Positions 5,697 through 44,987 of a stretch of DNA of 64,000 nt are shown here, piece by piece. Source of the DNA: Alicyclobacillus contaminans DSM 17975 (GTDB taxonomy: Bacteria > Bacillota > Bacilli > Alicyclobacillales > Alicyclobacillaceae). The position numbers and the translations under genes were made by a program. The stretch lies in assembly GCF_000429525.1 (NCBI RefSeq), contig NZ_AUCA01000001.1, positions 1-64,000 of the forward strand, written 5' to 3'. How positions within the stretch are numbered: the first letter of the stretch is position 1; each line of letters begins with the position of its first letter. Under the pieces are notes generated by a model, which did not search any database, was not told the DNA's origin, and saw only the letters and a list, made by a program, of their open reading frames with translations.

Positions 5697-5785
5697 TTCC
5701 ACATGAACAGGGCAAACCAGTGGAAACGCTGGGACGCAAAGCCACGGGTCTAAGGGTAAAACCTATGATCGCCGGGTTGCCACGA
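5697..5785 (+). promoter_or_regulatory. c-di-GMP-I (GEMM-I) riboswitch
   Basis: The conserved GEMM-I core is present in order: AACAGGGCAAACC, a short P2 stem capped by GAAA, GGGACGCAAAGCC, the CTAAGG element, and the closing CGGGTTGCC. The last segment pairs with GGCAAACC to make P1. This class binds cyclic di-GMP and controls transcription or translation of the downstream gene. The gene that follows encodes an EAL-domain c-di-GMP phosphodiesterase, so the RNA probably provides feedback on the nucleotide it senses. A terminator follows at once, indicating transcriptional control. Confidence 0.93.
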
Positions 5786-37471: not shown

Positions 37472-38056
37472 TCAGCCTGCCGTGACGTTGTTGGACGCGT
37501 TGCGCCGGGACTGGTAGTGGCCGAGCCAGCACTGCTGAAAGTCGTCTTCAGTTAATTCGAACACTTCATCCGCTTCTTTTCTCAGTTCGGTCGGTTGCCC
37601 CGGTGTCAGTACGACCTCCACAATCTTGCCCAGTTTCTTGATCTCCTGAATCGGTGTGATATAGTCCGTGTCTCCACTGAAGATAATGGCCGTGTCATAG
37701 CTGTTAGTGTACGCGCCAATCAGCAGTTGCGTCGCCAGATTTACGTCCGTGCCTTTTTCTACGGGGATGTACGTGTTGGGATTGTTGGGGTCGAAGGGGA
37801 CGCCGGGTATTTTGAGTTTTTGAATCCAGCCCTGAACCACGGTGAAACGGGGAATGTGGCTGAGCGCGGCGACCAACCCCTGCTGCTGCGGATCGTTCAC
37901 AGTGTAGAAGTACGAGCGCAGGAGTTGTCGGTTGGGTCGCTTGTTGACCACGAGATCGCACATCTGTTGAAAGTTGTAGCGCGGAGGCTGCTTCAAGTAA
38001 AACTTGCAGGCGTGATAAAAGTTGTTGCCATCAATAAAAACCATCACTCGTTCCAC
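37472..38056 (-). CDS. NYN-domain (LabA/DUF88) putative ribonuclease
   Basis: About 194 residues. The PIN-like NYN fold is marked by VFIDGNNFYHA, then EKGTDVNLATQLL, and IIFSGDTDYITPIQEIKKLGK; the three acidic positions (D, D, D-T-D) are the usual metal ligands. Related proteins act as RNases or regulatory factors. The GTG at 38056 follows AAAGGAGG. The gene has an unusual leader of about 140 bases with three hairpins, so its expression may be controlled after transcription starts. Confidence 0.88.
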   Translation of the reverse strand: MERVMVFIDGNNFYHACKFYLKQPPRYNFQQMCDLVVNKRPNRQLLRSYFYTVNDPQQQGLVAALSHIPRFTVVQGWIQKLKIPGVPFDPNNPNTYIPVEKGTDVNLATQLLIGAYTNSYDTAIIFSGDTDYITPIQEIKKLGKIVEVVLTPGQPTELRKEADEVFELTEDDFQQCWLGHYQSRRNASNNVTAG

Positions 38057-38083
38057 AGAATTCCTCCTTTTGTGTAGTAAAGA

Positions 38084-38195
38084 AGGTCAGGCGTACCTGA
38101 CCTCCCCTTAATACAATATGCGGTTAATGAAGCCGTAGCAACATTAACGTCCAGATACCCCTCGAGAGTTCGTCCAACTCCCGAGCACCGTTGCT
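38084..38195 (-). promoter_or_regulatory. Hairpin-rich leader of the NYN gene
   Basis: Read leftward from about 38195 there are three hairpins. The first is CTCGGGAGTT/AACTCTCGAG (38185-38161), the second GTTAATG/CATTAAC (38148-38123), and the third AGGTCAGG-N4-CCTGACCT (38103-38084), a 20-base palindrome followed by CTTCTTT. The last resembles an attenuator placed 25 bases before the GTG and overlapping the approach to its ribosome binding site. It matches no riboswitch I recognise. Confidence 0.45.
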
Positions 38196-38201
38196 GAAAA
38201 T

Positions 38202-38230
38202 ATAGTATGCAATCCGATAGAAAAATGCAA
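38202..38230 (-). promoter_or_regulatory. Candidate promoter of the NYN leader
   Basis: Read leftward, TTGCAT (38230-38225) and TACTAT (38207-38202) are separated by 17 bases. Start would fall near 38195. Confidence 0.45.
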
Positions 38231-38447
38231 GACCCTGTCGAATCATGGCGGATTATTTTCTCGCTCACCGTCACAGAGCCATGGGTTTATGAGAATTCTA
38301 TCATTGAAAATCCATAGCTTCTCGGTATGATGGAAAAGAAGTCAGACGGGACCATGATGGTGTGGAACGCTTCGTTTGCACGGAACGTGGTCGCACGAAA
38401 CCTGTCGGGTCCTGCGGTTGTCCCGACGACAATACAGGAGGGTGACA

Positions 38448-39407
38448 GTGCGCCTGTTACGTTTGTCTCTACTGCTGCTGTTGGTAGGATTGTACACCTT
38501 CGTATCCAGCTCACTTCTGATTTTTCATGGGCCGTTCAGCGGTCTGCGCGAGTATATCATTGATTCGTTCACCACATCGAGGCACGGCTATTTGTTGCGT
38601 CCACTCTCTCTGTTCACGCTGTCGCAAAAGGTGATTGACGAACATAACCCCAACCTGTCGGCGGGGGCCGGCAGATCTTCGGAACAAGAATCGCGGGACT
38701 TCCGCAGTCTGAGCGGAGACAATCGAATTGAGTACAAGACCTACACCGGGAAGACGTTCACTGCGCAAATCCTCTTGGTGCACAATCCCCTGCGCCTGCA
38801 GGTGGCGGTCACAGGGCGCCTCGGCGATGTCGGGGAATCGGTCAGCGATATGGTGCAGGAGCACCACGCGGTCGCCGGGGTCAACGGCGGCGCGTTTCAG
38901 GATGTGGGATGGCACGGCACAGGCGGTGTGCCGCTCGGAATCACCATCTCCAATGGCAAGGTGGTACAGGCTTCCTCGAATCAACAGTCTGTGATTGGAT
39001 TGACGGCACAGGGGGCATTGATTGTCGGCGATTACACGTTGGATCAATTAGAGGCGCTGCACGTCACCAACGCGCTGACGTTCGGACCGGTGCTGATTCA
39101 AGATGGCAAGGTGGTTGTTCAGGGGGACGGCGGCTGGGGCTATGCGCCGCGAACCGCCATCGGTCAAACGGCAGACGGGACCATTATCCTGATGGTGACG
39201 GACGGCCGCTTTGTGCACGGACCCGGTAATGTGGGGGCGTCCTTGGCCGAAGTGGCGCAGTTGATGCAGAGCTACGGGGCCGTGGTGGCCGCCAACCTCG
39301 ATGGCGGCAGCTCATCCACCATGGTCTACAACGGCAAATTGATCAATGATCCAACGGACATCCTGGGCGAGCGGAAAGTCGCCACGGCCTGGATTGTCAC
39401 GCGATAG
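38448..39407 (+). CDS. Phosphodiester glycosidase (NAGPA) family exported protein
   Basis: About 319 residues. One N-terminal helix (LLRLSLLLLLVGLYTFVSSS) anchors or exports the protein. The NAGPA domain follows with HHAVAGVNGGAF, GGVPLGITISNGK, the middle APRTAIGQTADGTIILMVTDG, and the C-terminal NLDGGSSSTMVYNGK. The family cleaves N-acetylglucosamine-phosphodiester bonds, and related bacterial proteins are linked to exopolysaccharide or teichoic-acid metabolism. The GTG at 38448 follows CAGGAGGG. Twelve bases separate it from the next secreted-protein gene and a deacetylase follows, so the three form an envelope operon. Confidence 0.82.
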   Translation: MRLLRLSLLLLLVGLYTFVSSSLLIFHGPFSGLREYIIDSFTTSRHGYLLRPLSLFTLSQKVIDEHNPNLSAGAGRSSEQESRDFRSLSGDNRIEYKTYTGKTFTAQILLVHNPLRLQVAVTGRLGDVGESVSDMVQEHHAVAGVNGGAFQDVGWHGTGGVPLGITISNGKVVQASSNQQSVIGLTAQGALIVGDYTLDQLEALHVTNALTFGPVLIQDGKVVVQGDGGWGYAPRTAIGQTADGTIILMVTDGRFVHGPGNVGASLAEVAQLMQSYGAVVAANLDGGSSSTMVYNGKLINDPTDILGERKVATAWIVTR

Positions 39408-39419
39408 GAGGGGTGAACC

Positions 39420-40433
39420 GTGAAAAAGCGTACGAGGCGGTTCATCGCCTTGTTGGTGGTGGCCTGTGGCATGGTCACCGTCGCGGAGTTGGCCGTGTTT
39501 TCGCACTATGAGTCGCTGTTGGGGGGGGGAAGCGTCACGGTTTCCGCACCGCCGCAGAAAACCGTACAGTCCCTGAAAAACATCCATCCATTGAATCAGA
39601 ACCCGGCGCTGATGGCCGTATCCGAAAGCACGGATAAATTTGCGTATGTGGATGAGAACAACACCTTGCACGTGATTGATCTCACCACCAATCAAGATGT
39701 CTTCACCAAGGCGCTGAATCACACGGCGGTCGCCATCACCTGGATTGGCGATGACAGCATTTTCGTGGGCACCGAGGAACCGGCCGCGGGCGGAAAAACG
39801 CTGTATCTGAGCACCATCAGCGTCGCGTCCGGACAGATTCGATTGGTCCATGCCTATCAGGGTTTCTCGAGCAGCGCCAGATTCCGGGCGATAACGTACA
39901 GCCCATATACGAACGATGTGTACGTGCTCATCGCGGGAAATACCAACAGTCTTGTGTACCACTTCGATACCATGAGTGACATGAGCCAGGTGTCCCTCGG
40001 AGGGCGCTACGTCACGGACGAGGCGGTTACGCAGACGACCAACGTGTTGTACGTGCAGGATCGCGCGAACGGTGTACCCAACGTGTTGAAGTACAGCAAG
40101 GGCACCGTGGAGCTGGTGCATACCAACAGCTGCTTGTACCGCGTGGTGAACGATGCGCTGTATTTTGGCGTGTTGGACAACCAGGGGAACGTCATTCGCA
40201 TTGACAAGGACGAAAACGGACAACTTTCGGTGTACTATACGCTGACTGCGCCGACGTCTCCGGACAAAGTGTTTGTCAACGGCGACGGACATATCCTGGT
40301 GGCGAACGGAGACAGCCTACTGGACGAACAGACGCATAAAACCATCCAATTGCCGCAGAATAGTCAACTGAGTGTGCAGGCCAACGCGTGCTTGGCTTGG
40401 ACGAAGGATGGAACCGTATTGGTGGTGTCATAG
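39420..40433 (+). CDS. Exported beta-propeller-like protein
   Basis: About 337 residues, GTG start. A signal or anchor helix (FIALLVVACGMVTVAELAVF) is followed by repeated beta-rich units such as DKFAYVDENNTLHVIDLTTNQDVFTKA, AVAITWIGDDSIFVG and FRAITYSPYTNDVYVLIAG, which suggest a WD40/PQQ-like propeller. No enzyme motif is seen. A run of nine G bases (39531-39539) lies in codons 37-40, early in the gene. It sits between the NAGPA protein and a polysaccharide deacetylase, so it is probably extracellular and involved with cell-surface polymer. Confidence 0.65.
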   Translation: MKKRTRRFIALLVVACGMVTVAELAVFSHYESLLGGGSVTVSAPPQKTVQSLKNIHPLNQNPALMAVSESTDKFAYVDENNTLHVIDLTTNQDVFTKALNHTAVAITWIGDDSIFVGTEEPAAGGKTLYLSTISVASGQIRLVHAYQGFSSSARFRAITYSPYTNDVYVLIAGNTNSLVYHFDTMSDMSQVSLGGRYVTDEAVTQTTNVLYVQDRANGVPNVLKYSKGTVELVHTNSCLYRVVNDALYFGVLDNQGNVIRIDKDENGQLSVYYTLTAPTSPDKVFVNGDGHILVANGDSLLDEQTHKTIQLPQNSQLSVQANACLAWTKDGTVLVVS

Positions 40434-40454
40434 TTCGCCTGGAGGGACAGTGTC

Positions 40455-41258
40455 ATGGGGAGACGGAGCCGAAGCGAGCACATCGGTGGCCTGCGGTATT
40501 TCCGCCGCGGGCGGCTGTTTGGGAAGCTCTGTCTGTGTGCTATCGCGGCGAGCTCGGTGGTCGGGTTGGTCGGGGCCGCTCCGGCTTCAGCGGCCGAGAC
40601 TCGATACGTTGTCAGCGCAAATCTGAGCCAACAGTTCCCTGGAATTGTGTTTTACACCGGGAGGCCATCGGCGAAAAACGTGGCTCTGACGTTTGATGAC
40701 GGGCCGGATGCCAAGTACACGCCGCAAGTGCTGGATATCCTGCGGAGATATCATGTGAAGGCGACATTTTTCGTACTCGGCGTTCGGGCCAAGAGGTATC
40801 CTCAAACTGTGCGCCGCATGGTACGGGAAGGTCACGCCATCGGCAACCATACGTGGAATCACCCGGATTTGGCGAAGATGAGCGCTTCCGAAATTCGGGA
40901 TCAAATTGTGCGTACGGATTGTGTGCTGTCACCGCTGATAGGGTATCGCACGAATCTGTTGCGCCCGCCATACGGGGCGCTGAACCCGGATACGGTGCGG
41001 GTGGTATCGGCGATGGGATACAAAGTGGTGGACTGGTCGGTGGACACGCGCGACTGGGCCGGGACGCCCGTTCCGGCAATGCTTGCGATGGTCCGCAAGG
41101 ACGTGCGGCCGGGGGCCATCATTCTGGAGCACTGCGGGGGCAAAGCGGATGTCAATCTGGACAACACACTGCAGGCGCTGCCGAAGATCATTGAGTATCT
41201 GCGCAGCCAGGGATACCGATTGGTGACCATTCCCGAGTTGATTGGGACCTCCCGCTAG
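40455..41258 (+). CDS. Secreted polysaccharide deacetylase
   Basis: About 267 residues. A signal peptide with an alanine-rich cleavage region (LVGAAPASAAE) is followed by a CE4 domain: ALTFDDGPD, HAIGNHTWNHPDLAKM, LLRPPYGALNPDT, VVDWSVDTRDW and ILEHCGG. It is closely related to the deacetylase at 473 but carries an export signal. It should act outside the membrane on N-acetylated glycans. The ATG at 40455 follows GGAGGGACAG. It is the last gene of the envelope operon. Confidence 0.9.
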   Translation: MGRRSRSEHIGGLRYFRRGRLFGKLCLCAIAASSVVGLVGAAPASAAETRYVVSANLSQQFPGIVFYTGRPSAKNVALTFDDGPDAKYTPQVLDILRRYHVKATFFVLGVRAKRYPQTVRRMVREGHAIGNHTWNHPDLAKMSASEIRDQIVRTDCVLSPLIGYRTNLLRPPYGALNPDTVRVVSAMGYKVVDWSVDTRDWAGTPVPAMLAMVRKDVRPGAIILEHCGGKADVNLDNTLQALPKIIEYLRSQGYRLVTIPELIGTSR

Positions 41259-41276
41259 TTGGGTATTCCGCTCGGA

Positions 41277-41306
41277 TTGAACGGCATTGCTATCCTCTGC
41301 TACAGT
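41277..41306 (+). promoter_or_regulatory. Promoter of the FMN-riboswitch transcript
   Basis: TTGAAC at 41277 and TACAGT at 41301 are separated by 18 bases. Start would be near 41313, just ahead of the aptamer. Confidence 0.5.
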
Positions 41307-41324
41307 GATCTCATCTGAATATGA

Positions 41325-41468
41325 ACCTTCGGGGGGCAGGGTGAGGCACAGGAAGGTGCCAATTCCCGACCGGTGGTGACGCCGTCAGGCGAAGGCCACG
41401 AGCCGCAAGGCAGGAACTGGTGAGAGTCCAGTACCGACGGTACAGTCCGGATGGGAGAAGGGAACGGG
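41325..41468 (+). promoter_or_regulatory. FMN (RFN) riboswitch
   Basis: The RFN element is clear: CTTCGGGGGGCAGGGTG at the 5' side, AATTCCCGACCGGTGGT, the CACGAGCCG segment, CTGGTGAGAGTCCAG, ACCGACGGTACAGTCCGGATGGGAGAAGG (given here as consecutive landmarks ACCGAC, AGTCCGGATGGGAGAAGG). It binds FMN and usually represses riboflavin synthesis or uptake genes. A terminator hairpin follows at 41523. The downstream coding sequence is a DMT-transporter stub followed by a LysE exporter, not a known riboflavin gene. Confidence 0.95.
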
Positions 41469-41522
41469 AAACCCGGCTGATTCTGTGTTCCTTGGCGCCG
41501 AATCGCCGGGTTGTGGTGACTT

Positions 41523-41563
41523 GCCCCGAAGCGCGTGTTTTCTGCGGCTTCGGGGCATTTCTC
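41523..41563 (+). terminator. FMN-riboswitch terminator
   Basis: GCCCCGAAGC pairs with GCTTCGGGGC around a 14-base loop, followed by ATTTCTCTT. This is the expression platform that should form when FMN is bound. Confidence 0.78.
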
Positions 41564-41698
41564 TTCCCAGCAGCGCGCGACTTCAGAGGCACCGCAACGT
41601 GGTTGCTGCGGTGCGCCGATGATGCGAAGTTTGCCCTGTTGAGCGAGGCGCTGCGGAAGGTTCAATTCGGAACACCTTTGAAGGAAGGGTTTTGAATT

Positions 41699-41941
41699 GA
41701 AGATGGCGAAGCTGCGCATACAGGCGACCGGTGGGTCGTCGCTCGGTGTTTGGTTGCGCTCGGTGCTGCGTTCTGGGGATTGGATTCGATTTTGATTGTA
41801 CCTTTGGTGCGGGTCCTGACGTCCACCCAAATTGTGTTTTTGGAGCACGTGCTCCTCGCTCTGTTTGCACTGCCCGTGGTGTGGCGGTCGCGCGGCGGCG
41901 TCACGGCGGAAGGCGTGTGCGGAAAGGAAGTTGCCGTCCTC
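41699..41941 (+). pseudogene. N-terminal stub of a DMT/EamA transporter
   Basis: A frame open from a TGA at 41694 encodes VALGAAFWGLDSILIVPLVR, LTSTQIVFLEHVLLALFAL and PVVWRSR. This is the first two helices of an EamA transporter (compare the WG and the EhlllaLl patterns of the family). There is no standard start with a ribosome binding site; the AAGGAAGG at 41681 is followed only by ATT in this frame, and a TTG at 41750 is poorly placed. After about 60 residues the frame runs straight into the LysE gene. Riboflavin transporters of the RibN type are EamA proteins, so this may be what remains of the original riboswitch target. Confidence 0.6.
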
Positions 41942-42586
41942 ATGATGGAATTATTCGGTTCAGGATTTTTGCTTTCGTTATCGCTCTGCCTAGATTTGGG
42001 AATTGTGAACGTGGCCGTGCTGAAGACCGGGATTGAGCGAGGTGTCGTTCCTTCGTTCTTGCTCGGCCTGGGTTCGTCATTTGGAGACCTGGTGTACGCC
42101 GGGCTATCCATGGTCGGAATGTCACTGTTGCTGCGGTTCGCGGTGGTGCGATGGCTGCTTTGGATTGGCGGAACATTGGCGCTGGGATACCTGTCCGTGC
42201 ATATGATCCGGGAATCGCTCCGCCCAAAGGCGCTGGTCCTGAACGAAGCCGGTACCGCGATCGAGTCATCCTGGATCCGGCCGTTGCTGACCGGCGTTGG
42301 TCTCGCACTGTCTTCCCCTTCGGCCATTCTCTGGTTTGCGGCGGTGGGCGGCAGTGTGATTGCTGCCACCACGCGTACAGGCGCACTGGGGGGATCCTCT
42401 CTGGTCTTCTTCCTAGGCTTTTTCACCGCCGGCGTGTTGTGGTCGGCGGTCGTGGCGTTCGTCAGCGGCCAGGCGCGGCGCTGGCTCGGGACATCGCTGC
42501 TTCGCGGGGTGTCCTTACTGTCCGCGGCCCTGTTCGTGTATTTCGCGTGCCGCGTTTTTCTCAATGGCTTGCACACGTTGGTCTGA
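41942..42586 (+). CDS. LysE-family exporter
   Basis: About 214 residues from the ATG at 41942, the usual length for LysE/RhtB proteins, with five or six helices. It reads FGSGFLLSLSLCLDLGIVNVAVLKTGIERG, continues with FLLGLGSSFGDLVYAGLSMVG and ends with a hydrophobic helix; LysE members normally have GPNxxxV where this has DLGIVNVAV. AGGAAG lies eleven bases upstream. The same open frame extends upstream to a TTG at 41750 through the DMT stub, so a fused 278-residue protein is possible. LysE proteins export amino acids or other small molecules; control by an FMN riboswitch is unexpected. Confidence 0.78.
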   Translation: MMELFGSGFLLSLSLCLDLGIVNVAVLKTGIERGVVPSFLLGLGSSFGDLVYAGLSMVGMSLLLRFAVVRWLLWIGGTLALGYLSVHMIRESLRPKALVLNEAGTAIESSWIRPLLTGVGLALSSPSAILWFAAVGGSVIAATTRTGALGGSSLVFFLGFFTAGVLWSAVVAFVSGQARRWLGTSLLRGVSLLSAALFVYFACRVFLNGLHTLV

Positions 42587-42646: not shown

Positions 42647-42733
42647 ATGGCGATGGTTTTGCTGCTGTTGGTGTTGGCAGGCTTCGCCGTGGTGTTTTTC
42701 TCGGCCGGCTTGGTGCAGTTGCGATACAGTTGA
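42647..42733 (+). CDS. Possible 28-residue membrane peptide
   Basis: An ATG frame encodes MAMVLLLLVLAGFAVVFFSAGLVQLRYS, listed here as two halves MAMVLLLLVLAGFAVV and FFSAGLVQLRYS. This is a single hydrophobic helix with a short basic tail. It lies 60 bases after the LysE stop, in the same frame, with no clear ribosome binding site. It may be a real small membrane protein or the remnant tail of a transporter. Confidence 0.25.
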   Translation: MAMVLLLLVLAGFAVVFFSAGLVQLRYS

Positions 42734-42746
42734 CGGAAAAGCAATG

Positions 42747-42803: not shown

Positions 42804-44417
42804 TCACGCTTCCGTCGGTTGGCTGCGTTTGCGCGGATTGGAGATCTGAACTTTCCCGACGAACACCGTCAACAGCGTGCCGACCAGGACGAATGCCAGC
42901 CCCCAGAGAAACACGCTGTGCAGCGAGGTGACGAGCGACGACTTGAGAATGGGCACGAACTGCTGCGAGAATTGAGCTGGCATTTTGGCCAGCGCCTCCG
43001 GGCTGAGCAGCGACGAGTACAGGCTCTGCGCATTGCCGTGAATCATCGTCTGCAGCTGCTGGGTCGCCGGATTGTTCGCGGGCAGATGCTGAAACAACGG
43101 CGCCGTCTTTTCCGAGAGCACGTGGCTTGACCGATTGTTGAGCACTGCGCCGAGGATGGTCATGCCGAACGTGCCGCCGATTTGCCGGAAAAACTGGCTG
43201 GATGACGTCACCACGCCGAGTTCCGACTTCGGGAAGCTGTCCTGCAGTGCAATCGTGAGAATCGGGAACACGAGCCCCATGCCCAGTCCCAGGATGACCA
43301 TGTAGACGGACACCGTAAACCCGGATGTGGACACCTGAATCATCGACAGGAGGCCGAAGCTGACCGCCATGATGATCATGCCGAGCGCCAGTTGCACGCG
43401 GACGCCAATCTTCAGCACCAGTTGACCGCCGAGCACACTGCAGGCCATCATCGCAATCATCATGGGCGTCATGGCCGTGCCCGAGGTGGATGGGCTGATG
43501 CCAAGAATTCCCTGCAAGAACAGCGGCACAAACATGATGGATCCGAACATGCCCACCGCCATCAGAAAGCCGACGGCGTTAATGGTGGTGAACACGCGGC
43601 TCTTGAACAGGCGCAGCGGGATGATGGGTTCCGACGCCCGTTGTTCCGCTACGGCAAACAGCGCCAGCGCCACCACGGCCAGGGCGAACAGGCCCAGAAT
43701 CTGCCACGATGTCCAGGCGTAATCCTTGCCGCCGAAGGTCAGTGCCAGCAAGATGCTCACCACGCCAACCACCATGGTGACAATCCCGGCGATGTCGAAT
43801 TGCACCTTGCCCTTGCGAGAGTGGCTCGGCAGACCGAGGGCAATCAAAATCATCGCGGCGATGGCCACGGGCAGATTGATGTAGAACACCCACCGCCAGG
43901 TCAACGCGTCGACAATCCAACCGCCGATTTGCGGACCAATCACCGAGGACAGCCCGAAGATGGCGCCGAACACACCTTGCCACTTGGCGCGGTCTTTGCC
44001 GGAGAACAGGTCTCCGATGATGATCATGGCCATGGGCATCATGATGCCGCCGCCGAGGCCCTGAAAGCCGCGGAACCAAATCAATTGGGGCATCGTTTGG
44101 GCCATGCCGCAGAGCGCCGACCCGGCCACGAAAACAATCAGCCCCGTCAAGTACACCACGCGGCGTCCGAGCAGGTCAGCGAGCTTTCCGGCAATGGGCA
44201 CCACGGTGGTGGATGTCAGCATATATGCGGTGGTCAACCAGGTCATCAGGCCCAGTCCGCCCAACTCGCCGACGATGCGCGGCATGGCCGTACCCACAAT
44301 CGTTTGGTCGAGGGCGCCGAACAGCATGGCAATCATCAATCCTGCGATGAGCATGCCGCGGTGGCGAACGGTCGGCGCGGACGTTTCCATGAGGGTCTGT
44401 GTGGATTCCAACGTCAT
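42804..44417 (-). CDS. DHA2-family MFS drug efflux transporter (second copy)
   Basis: About 537 residues with 14 predicted helices. The N-terminal LFGALDQTIVGTAMPRI, the motif-A loop KLADLLGRRVVYL and the motif-C region GPQIGGWIVD identify an EmrB/QacA-type proton-driven exporter. The ATG at 44417 overlaps the stop of the MarR gene as ATGA, with GGAGGA just before it, so translation is coupled. It is a paralogue of the exporter at 27079, in the same two-gene arrangement. Confidence 0.9.
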   Translation of the reverse strand: MTLESTQTLMETSAPTVRHRGMLIAGLMIAMLFGALDQTIVGTAMPRIVGELGGLGLMTWLTTAYMLTSTTVVPIAGKLADLLGRRVVYLTGLIVFVAGSALCGMAQTMPQLIWFRGFQGLGGGIMMPMAMIIIGDLFSGKDRAKWQGVFGAIFGLSSVIGPQIGGWIVDALTWRWVFYINLPVAIAAMILIALGLPSHSRKGKVQFDIAGIVTMVVGVVSILLALTFGGKDYAWTSWQILGLFALAVVALALFAVAEQRASEPIIPLRLFKSRVFTTINAVGFLMAVGMFGSIMFVPLFLQGILGISPSTSGTAMTPMMIAMMACSVLGGQLVLKIGVRVQLALGMIIMAVSFGLLSMIQVSTSGFTVSVYMVILGLGMGLVFPILTIALQDSFPKSELGVVTSSSQFFRQIGGTFGMTILGAVLNNRSSHVLSEKTAPLFQHLPANNPATQQLQTMIHGNAQSLYSSLLSPEALAKMPAQFSQQFVPILKSSLVTSLHSVFLWGLAFVLVGTLLTVFVGKVQISNPRKRSQPTEA

Positions 44418-44893
44418 TCCTCCGTTTTGCGCGGTGAACCGAGCACCAACGGTACGTTGGTGACTTCGGCAATCTGCGCGAGATTTTCCAATGCCGAAAG
44501 GAAGGTCTCCACCTTCTCCTCCGGCATCTGAGACAAGCAATGGGATACAATCTTCCTTCGTTGTTGAAGCACGTGTTCGAGAGCCCGCCGTCCTGCTGGC
44601 GTAATGGAGAGCGTGACCACGCGGCGGTCATGGCTGGAGCGGGATCGTTTGACGAATCCGTGGTTCTCCAACCGATCCAACATGACCGTCACAGCGCTCG
44701 GATTGACCTCCATTTTGTCCGCCAATTGGGAGACGGTGCAGTCCTCCCTGCTCTGAATAAAGAACAACAGAAAGCACTGCCCGGGAGTGAGGGGAGTGTC
44801 CAACTGCTGCATGACGCCTGGCCCGAAAAAGTGTAACACCGTGTACATCGTGCGTTCAAATCGCTGCGTTTGTGATTCGGTGGATGAAGGCAC
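44414..44893 (-). CDS. MarR-family repressor (second efflux operon)
   Basis: About 159 residues. The winged helix covers LTPGQCFLLFFIQSREDCTVSQLADKMEVNPSAVTVMLDRLEN-type sequence (helix-turn-helix around TVSQLADKMEVN), with the wing SHDRRVVTLSITPAGR. I chose GTG at 44893 with GAAGGGAAG upstream; an ATG at 44935 opens the same frame without a site. Its promoter carries a palindrome over the -10 element. It overlaps the MFS gene by four bases. Confidence 0.85.
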   Translation of the reverse strand: MPSSTESQTQRFERTMYTVLHFFGPGVMQQLDTPLTPGQCFLLFFIQSREDCTVSQLADKMEVNPSAVTVMLDRLENHGFVKRSRSSHDRRVVTLSITPAGRRALEHVLQQRRKIVSHCLSQMPEEKVETFLSALENLAQIAEVTNVPLVLGSPRKTEE

Positions 44894-44947
44894 ACGCTTC
44901 CCTTCTTTGCATGGATGAAAGTTTGAGGGGTGCAATGTTTTAAAAAC

Positions 44948-44987
44948 TAAACGTTTATACTGTATAACGAATTTCCCTTCGTGTCAA
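44948..44987 (-). promoter_or_regulatory. Promoter and operator of the second MarR/MFS operon
   Basis: Read leftward, TTGACA (44987-44982) and TACAGT (44964-44959) are separated by 17 bases. The palindrome TTATAC-T-GTATAA (44955-44967) covers the -10 element and TAAACGTTTA (44948-44957) overlaps its edge. Repression by the MarR protein encoded directly downstream is the simplest reading. Confidence 0.72.

What the first reader, a model, noticed from the sequence alone, without database searches (positions are those of the whole stretch)
41325..42586. FMN riboswitch driving a DMT stub joined to a LysE exporter
The RFN element and its terminator are unmistakable, yet the downstream coding sequence is not a known riboflavin gene. 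The first two helices of an EamA/DMT transporter, without a proper start, run in frame into a full-length LysE protein. Some FMN-controlled riboflavin transporters (RibN type) are EamA proteins. The locus may have lost the original transporter by deletion and placed a LysE gene under FMN control, or may encode a new chimeric flavin transporter.
Basis: partly seen in the sequence, partly recalled or inferred. Interest (0 to 1): 0.75.

Follow-up and report, generated by a model that had tools for sequence, protein, structure and literature searches.

The report
Decayed flavin-transporter locus captured by LysE
A vitamin-B2-sensing RNA switch that in related bacteria controls a transporter gene now sits, slightly damaged, in front of a wrecked fragment of that gene and an unrelated amino-acid-type exporter that moved in behind it, so this is a relic of a gene rearrangement rather than a new fused transporter.

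Summary
An FMN riboswitch (RF00050, 78 bits) lies at 41321-41466, followed by a strong terminator hairpin (41522-41557), the first ~50 codons of an EamA/DMT transporter (41750-41893) and a full-length LysE gene (ATG 41942 to 42586).

In the same-genus genome G001, the same chromosomal site has RFN followed by an intact DMT gene. Across the family, 18 of 19 genomes with a DMT orthologue have it directly after an RFN. The DMT is therefore the RFN's original client, probably a riboflavin transporter (inferred).

Here the DMT lost its 3' part, about 10.7 kb that G001 carries up to the next shared gene is absent, and LysE, which lies elsewhere in G001 (70% identical, no RFN nearby), occupies the gap.

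The 278-residue fusion is unlikely to be made: the ancestral DMT start is out of frame with the stub, no good in-frame start precedes it, and LysE has its own ATG and purifying selection.

The RFN also carries a two-G insertion in the FMN-contacting J1/2 segment, seen in no other listed RFN of 398 genomes of the class, so FMN control of LysE may already be lost.

Verdict: leader capture after transporter loss is supported; a chimeric flavin transporter is not.

The parts
41277..41306 (+). Possible weak promoter of the leader: TTGAAC - 18 nt - TACAGT
   Evidence: Read by eye; 8 of 12 consensus matches, below the threshold of the scan (one search found none); not conserved in G001. Weak.
41321..41466 (+). 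FMN riboswitch aptamer (RFN element, RF00050)
   Evidence: cmscan 78 bits, gathering 66.2; G001 counterpart 97 bits.
41331..41336 (+). GGGGGG run in J1/2 of the aptamer: two extra Gs against the invariant CTTCGGGGCAGGGTG
   Evidence: Alignment of 21 RFNs; pattern scan of 398 genomes with 0-4 nt allowed, where this is the only RFN listed with an insertion.
41522..41557 (+). Intrinsic terminator hairpin of the riboswitch; its left arm (GCCCCGAAG) is complementary to the aptamer's 5' arm (CTTCGGGG), a possible antiterminator
   Evidence: Fold -27.5 kcal/mol, z -4.63; duplex -22.9 kcal/mol here and in G001.
41697..41795 (+). Remnant of the ancestral DMT start (TTG 41697 / ATG 41703), frame reading MAKLRIQATGGSSLGVWL..., which hits a stop after about 30 codons; out of frame with the stub
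   Evidence: Translations; 7 nt shorter than the homologous G001 stretch, so not a multiple of three; family N-termini.
41750..41893 (+). DMT/EamA stub, frame of LysE: LVALGAAFWGLDSILIVPLVRVLTSTQIVFLEHVLLALFALPVVW...
   Evidence: HMM of RFN-linked DMTs, 69 bits, E 8e-22; tblastx to G001 C11:12204-12347.
41894..41920 (+). Approximate joint between DMT and LysE sequence
   Evidence: Base-level comparison with both G001 genes; limits are approximate because the sequences have diverged.
41921..41930 (+). Probable Shine-Dalgarno of lysE (GGAAAGGAAG), 11 nt before ATG 41942; resembles GAAAGAGAG before the G001 orthologue
   Evidence: Sequence comparison; inferred.
41942..42586 (+). LysE-family exporter, 214 aa, complete, own ATG (41942 or 41945)
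   Evidence: PF01810, 102.6 bits; orthologues G001 70%, G019 68%, G028 65% that start at or within a few residues of the same point; purifying selection against G001: differences by codon position 62/34/137.

Best explanation
This is the remnant of an FMN-riboswitch-controlled DMT (EamA) transporter gene whose 3' part was removed in a rearrangement that brought a LysE-family exporter gene to within about 50 bp of the break. LysE is translated from its own ATG at 41942, as a separate protein, from the transcript that starts before the RFN. Shown: intact RFN-DMT at the same site in the sister genome, loss of the DMT remainder and of the DNA up to the MFS gene, LysE unlinked to any RFN in relatives, frameshift at the DMT start, two-G insertion in the aptamer. 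Inferred: the lost DMT imported riboflavin; the host can do without it because it keeps the ribDEAH operon with its own RFN; LysE lost its own promoter region and now depends on the RFN transcript; if the damaged aptamer still binds FMN, LysE is turned off by FMN through the terminator, and if it does not, the aptamer's 5' arm pairs with the terminator's left arm and LysE is read constitutively. I think loss or weakening of FMN response is the more likely of the two. LysE's cargo is probably an amino acid or related small molecule, as in its family.
For: Synteny: window 37478-41893 matches G001 C11:5927-12347 and window 42903-44969 (MFS, MarR) matches C11:23089-25157, with only LysE in between here. 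G001 carries the full DMT after RFN with both EamA repeats. 19 of 41 family genomes have a DMT orthologue at E<=1e-30, and 18 of them lie directly downstream of an RFN on the same strand; own genome has only the stub plus a 26% paralogue. Own genome has a second RFN before ribD-ribE-ribBA-ribH. LysE orthologue of G001 is at C10:38280; no RFN in the eight relatives' LysE loci, and none at a convincing score in about 80 further LysE loci (the two weak ~20-bit hits in Caballeronia are not RFNs by Rfam). Frameshift of the DMT start. Aptamer insertion. Precedent for sensitivity: in Weissella cibaria single-base changes and a one-base deletion at positions 14-15, in the same 5' part of the aptamer, make rib expression insensitive to FMN (PMC10116070); G11 and G12 of J1/2 contact the FMN phosphate or build the pocket (PMC3764141).
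Against: Only two genomes of this genus are held, so a single rearrangement cannot be polarised or dated, and the exact joint is blurred by divergence. The stub's codons still show selection (differences by codon position 12/7/29), which fits recent decay but would also fit a part still in use. The frameshift and the G insertion are indels in a draft assembly and could be read errors, although the neighbouring genes are intact. The two-G insertion may be tolerated as a bulge.
Confidence: 0.8

Rival explanations
1. The stub and LysE are translated as one 278-residue (or longer) fusion, a new chimeric transporter regulated by FMN.
For: One continuous frame from 41696 to 42586; stub protein conserved with third-position bias.
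Against: No ATG or GTG in frame before LysE's own ATG; TTG 41750 lies inside the first helix and lacks a Shine-Dalgarno; the ancestral start is out of frame. LysE orthologues start at the LysE ATG. The stub holds about two helices, without the rest of the DMT fold. An in-frame joint arises by chance one time in three.
Confidence: 0.04
2. The capture was adaptive: the intact or retuned RFN now makes LysE expression respond to FMN, because this LysE exports a flavin, a flavin analogue such as roseoflavin, or a compound tied to flavin status.
For: Leader, terminator and LysE are all kept; aptamer still scores above the Rfam gathering score; LysE is under purifying selection.
Against: RFN-LysE occurs in no other genome examined; LysE is equally conserved where no RFN is near it; the aptamer has a unique insertion in the FMN-contacting segment; nothing links this LysE to flavins.
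Confidence: 0.1
3. Sequencing or assembly error: the two indels (aptamer GG, DMT start) are artefacts and the locus is otherwise a recent deletion fusion.
For: Draft genome of 111 contigs; one indel is in a G homopolymer.
Against: Adjacent genes (NAGPA, polysaccharide deacetylase, LysE, MFS, DUF4855) are uninterrupted; both indels fall in the one transcription unit that has lost its gene.
Confidence: 0.06

Closest known systems
FMN riboswitch (RFN element, Rfam RF00050)
   Same: All helices and nearly all invariant positions present, terminator-type expression platform, above the gathering score.
   Different: Two-G insertion in J1/2, seen in no other listed RFN of the class; first downstream complete gene is neither a riboflavin biosynthesis gene nor a flavin transporter.
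RFN-controlled DMT/EamA transporter of the Alicyclobacillaceae-type family (possibly ImpX-like; ImpX of Fusobacterium nucleatum was shown to import riboflavin, PMC4418817)
   Same: Stub and leader are orthologous to these genes.
   Different: Only the first ~50 codons remain and they are frameshifted against the start; relationship of the family to ImpX or RibN was not tested.
LysE-type translocators (PF01810), e.g. homoserine/threonine, lysine and leucine exporters
   Same: Full-length profile match, 102.6 bits.
   Different: Below the cut-offs of all NCBIfam named exporters (TIGR00949 47.7 of 183.95; TIGR00948 34.6 of 213.65), so its cargo is not assigned; preceded by an RFN leader, unlike its relatives.

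Membership tests
FMN riboswitch RF00050 | Score at or above the gathering threshold with the whole model covered | tested here: met
   78 bits against 66.2, model 1-138
FMN riboswitch RF00050 | Invariant J1/2-P2 segment CTTCRGGGCAGGGTG without insertion | tested here: not met
   CTTCGGGGGGCAGGGTG, two extra Gs
FMN riboswitch RF00050 | Expression platform: terminator or ribosome-site sequestration | tested here: met
   Terminator hairpin z -4.63 with U-rich tail
FMN riboswitch RF00050 | Binding of FMN and FMN-dependent control | not testable with these tools
   Needs in-line probing or a reporter
RFN-linked DMT/EamA transporter | Two EamA repeats, ten helices | tested here: not met
   About 50 codons of the N-terminus only; no C-terminal remnant up to 43000
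RFN-linked DMT/EamA transporter | Intact reading frame from its start | tested here: not met
   Start and stub in different frames
LysE translocator PF01810 | Full-length match above the gathering score | tested here: met
   102.6 bits against 25.6, positions 2-192 of 193
Named LysE exporters (lysine, homoserine/threonine, leucine) | NCBIfam equivalog or subfamily cut-off | tested here: not met
   All hits far below cut-off
RibN riboflavin transporter | Orthology to Rhizobium RibN | not tested
   No RibN sequence compared; PMC4418817 reports RibN only in Proteobacteria

The most novel reading that the evidence does not exclude
The FMN riboswitch has truly been rewired to a LysE exporter: it still senses FMN, and the LysE protein moves a flavin or flavin-linked compound, so that a new RFN-regulated transporter family arose by gene replacement.
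Probability: 0.05. Interest if true: 0.65.

Novelty: new variant of a known kind. Interest (0 to 1): 0.27.

Why it matters
It shows a riboswitch caught in transition: its own gene gone, its ligand-contact segment hit by an insertion, and an unrelated exporter placed downstream of it. It warns against assigning function to a gene from the riboswitch in front of it alone, since an automatic annotation would call this LysE a flavin transporter. It also documents that an RFN-linked DMT, a likely riboflavin transporter, is standard in this family and can be lost when riboflavin synthesis is kept.

Tried and rejected
Search for a DMT C-terminal remnant downstream of LysE (that would mean insertion of LysE into the gene): no hit in six frames up to 43000; a short hydrophobic ORF at 42647-42734 looked like a last DMT helix by eye but has no match. 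Search for RFN near LysE in relatives: only chance-level hits in Caballeronia, not RFN by Rfam. Search for a second intact DMT copy in the genome: none. Literature: no paper joining FMN riboswitch and EamA, or RFN and Alicyclobacillus; the FMN riboswitch + LysE search returned 41 papers, and the ten listed appear to match 'lyse/lysed'. Consensus promoter scan found none in the region, not even for the riboswitch, so it is uninformative. The ECF (RibU-type) family search gave only sub-threshold hits.

Full report
What is there. Rfam's FMN model matches 41321-41466 on the + strand with 78 bits (gathering 66.2). A hairpin at 41522-41557 (-27.5 kcal/mol, z -4.63, U-rich tail) is the expected terminator. 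The frame from 41696 to 42586 is open and holds an EamA-like stretch (41750-41893) and a complete LysE protein (PF01810, 102.6 bits).

The ancestral state. The window's genome (G000, 3.27 Mb, 111 contigs) has two RFNs. The other one precedes a riboflavin operon that reads as ribD, ribE, ribBA and ribH (identified by reading the translations). In the sister genome G001 the counterpart of the window locus, C11:11866-12003, has the same upstream polysaccharide deacetylase, an RFN of 97 bits and then a full-length DMT protein with both EamA repeats. Of 41 genomes in the family, 19 carry an orthologue of that DMT at E<=1e-30; comparing coordinates with the RFN hits, 18 of the 19 lie directly behind an RFN on the same strand (G417 by inference from its 370-aa neighbours is the least certain, since its RFN was not listed; G004 has none detected). 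The window genome has only the stub and a 26% paralogue. A profile of thirteen such DMTs recognises the stub at E 8e-22. A profile search by name of one Alicyclobacillus isolate that coincides with G022 places the group near Alicyclobacillus.

The rearrangement. Window 37478-41893 is collinear with G001 C11:5927-12347, and window 42903-44969 (an MFS pump and a MarR regulator) with C11:23089-25157. The roughly 10.7 kb that G001 has in between, from the middle of the DMT gene onward, is missing here and LysE stands in its place. G001's LysE orthologue (70% identical) is on another contig, C10:38280. None of the LysE loci of eight relatives, nor about 80 more distant ones, has an RFN at a convincing score. 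No C-terminal piece of the DMT is left downstream. Whether this was one deletion that joined DMT to a LysE lying downstream, or an insertion with deletion, cannot be told from two genomes of the genus.

Is the fusion made? Probably not. The remnant of the ancestral start (TTG 41697, ATG 41703) begins a frame reading MAKLRIQATGGSSLGVWL, which matches the family's N-termini but runs into a stop after about 30 codons, while the conserved helix LVALGAAFWG continues in another frame. The stretch is 7 nt shorter than in G001. In the frame of the stub the first possible start is TTG 41750, inside the first helix and without a Shine-Dalgarno. LysE has its own ATG at 41942, preceded by GGAAAGGAAG, and relatives' LysE proteins begin at or near the same point. 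LysE is clearly under purifying selection (differences from G001 by codon position 62/34/137). The stub shows the same bias (12/7/29), which I read as recent decay.

Is LysE under FMN control? The leader lies upstream of it and the upstream region of the G001 LysE is replaced here by DMT sequence, so LysE very likely depends on the RFN transcript (inferred). But the aptamer reads CTTCGGGGGGCAGGGTG where every other RFN aligned has CTTC(G/A)GGGCAGGGTG or a close variant. A scan of 398 genomes of the class that allowed 0-4 extra bases listed no other RFN with an insertion; three other hits with extra bases (G019 C6, two in G272) are unlikely to be RFNs but were not checked, and the list was cut off before its end. 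In the solved structure the J1/2 guanines G11 and G12 contact the FMN phosphate or form a triple (PMC3764141), and in Weissella a one-base deletion or substitutions close by in the 5' part of the aptamer abolish FMN regulation (PMC10116070). Reduced or absent FMN response is therefore plausible but unproven. The aptamer's 5' arm can pair with the terminator's left arm (-22.9 kcal/mol both here and in G001), so loss of binding would be expected to leave the gene on.

Comparison with what is known. As an RNA it is a member of RF00050 with one defining segment changed. As a protein gene it is an ordinary LysE-family exporter of unassigned cargo, below all named NCBIfam cut-offs. The lost DMT is the kind of RFN-controlled carrier for which ImpX of Fusobacterium is the tested precedent (PMC4418817); whether it is ImpX itself was not tested.

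Verdict. It is a neat evolutionary relic and an annotation trap, of modest general interest.

Noticed in passing
window 5701-5784 (+): c-di-GMP-I riboswitch (RF01051), 83.7 bits.
   Followed up: no
L080 513-1340, L081 490-1416, L075, L090, L091: A second, different EamA-type protein (MSGLLHAVWNLFAKQS...) stands behind an RFN in G019, G021 (twice), G042 and G046; a possible further RFN-controlled flavin transporter type.
   Followed up: partly
L088 539-958 (G011) and L087 (G028): RFNs followed only by a half-length EamA ORF or by no same-strand gene of size: possibly independent decay of RFN-linked DMT genes.
   Followed up: partly
G004 C6:64318-65238: Orthologue of the RFN-linked DMT with no RFN found in front of it.
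   Followed up: no
L109 15411-16031 (-), G001 C11: Inside the 10.7 kb present in G001 but not in the window lies another LysE-family gene on the opposite strand, next to an XRE-cupin regulator; it is not the orthologue of the window's LysE.
   Followed up: partly
window 41522-41557 and 41327-41334: The terminator's left arm is complementary to the aptamer's 5' arm; the matching terminator motif CTTC(G/A)GGGC + T run was found only in G000 (both RFNs) and in G001's DMT leader among the loci scanned, suggesting a genus-specific antiterminator design.
   Followed up: partly
window 42647-42734 (+): Short hydrophobic ORF (MAMVLLLLVLAGFAVVFFSAGLVQLRYS) behind LysE, without any match in the loci held.
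   Followed up: partly
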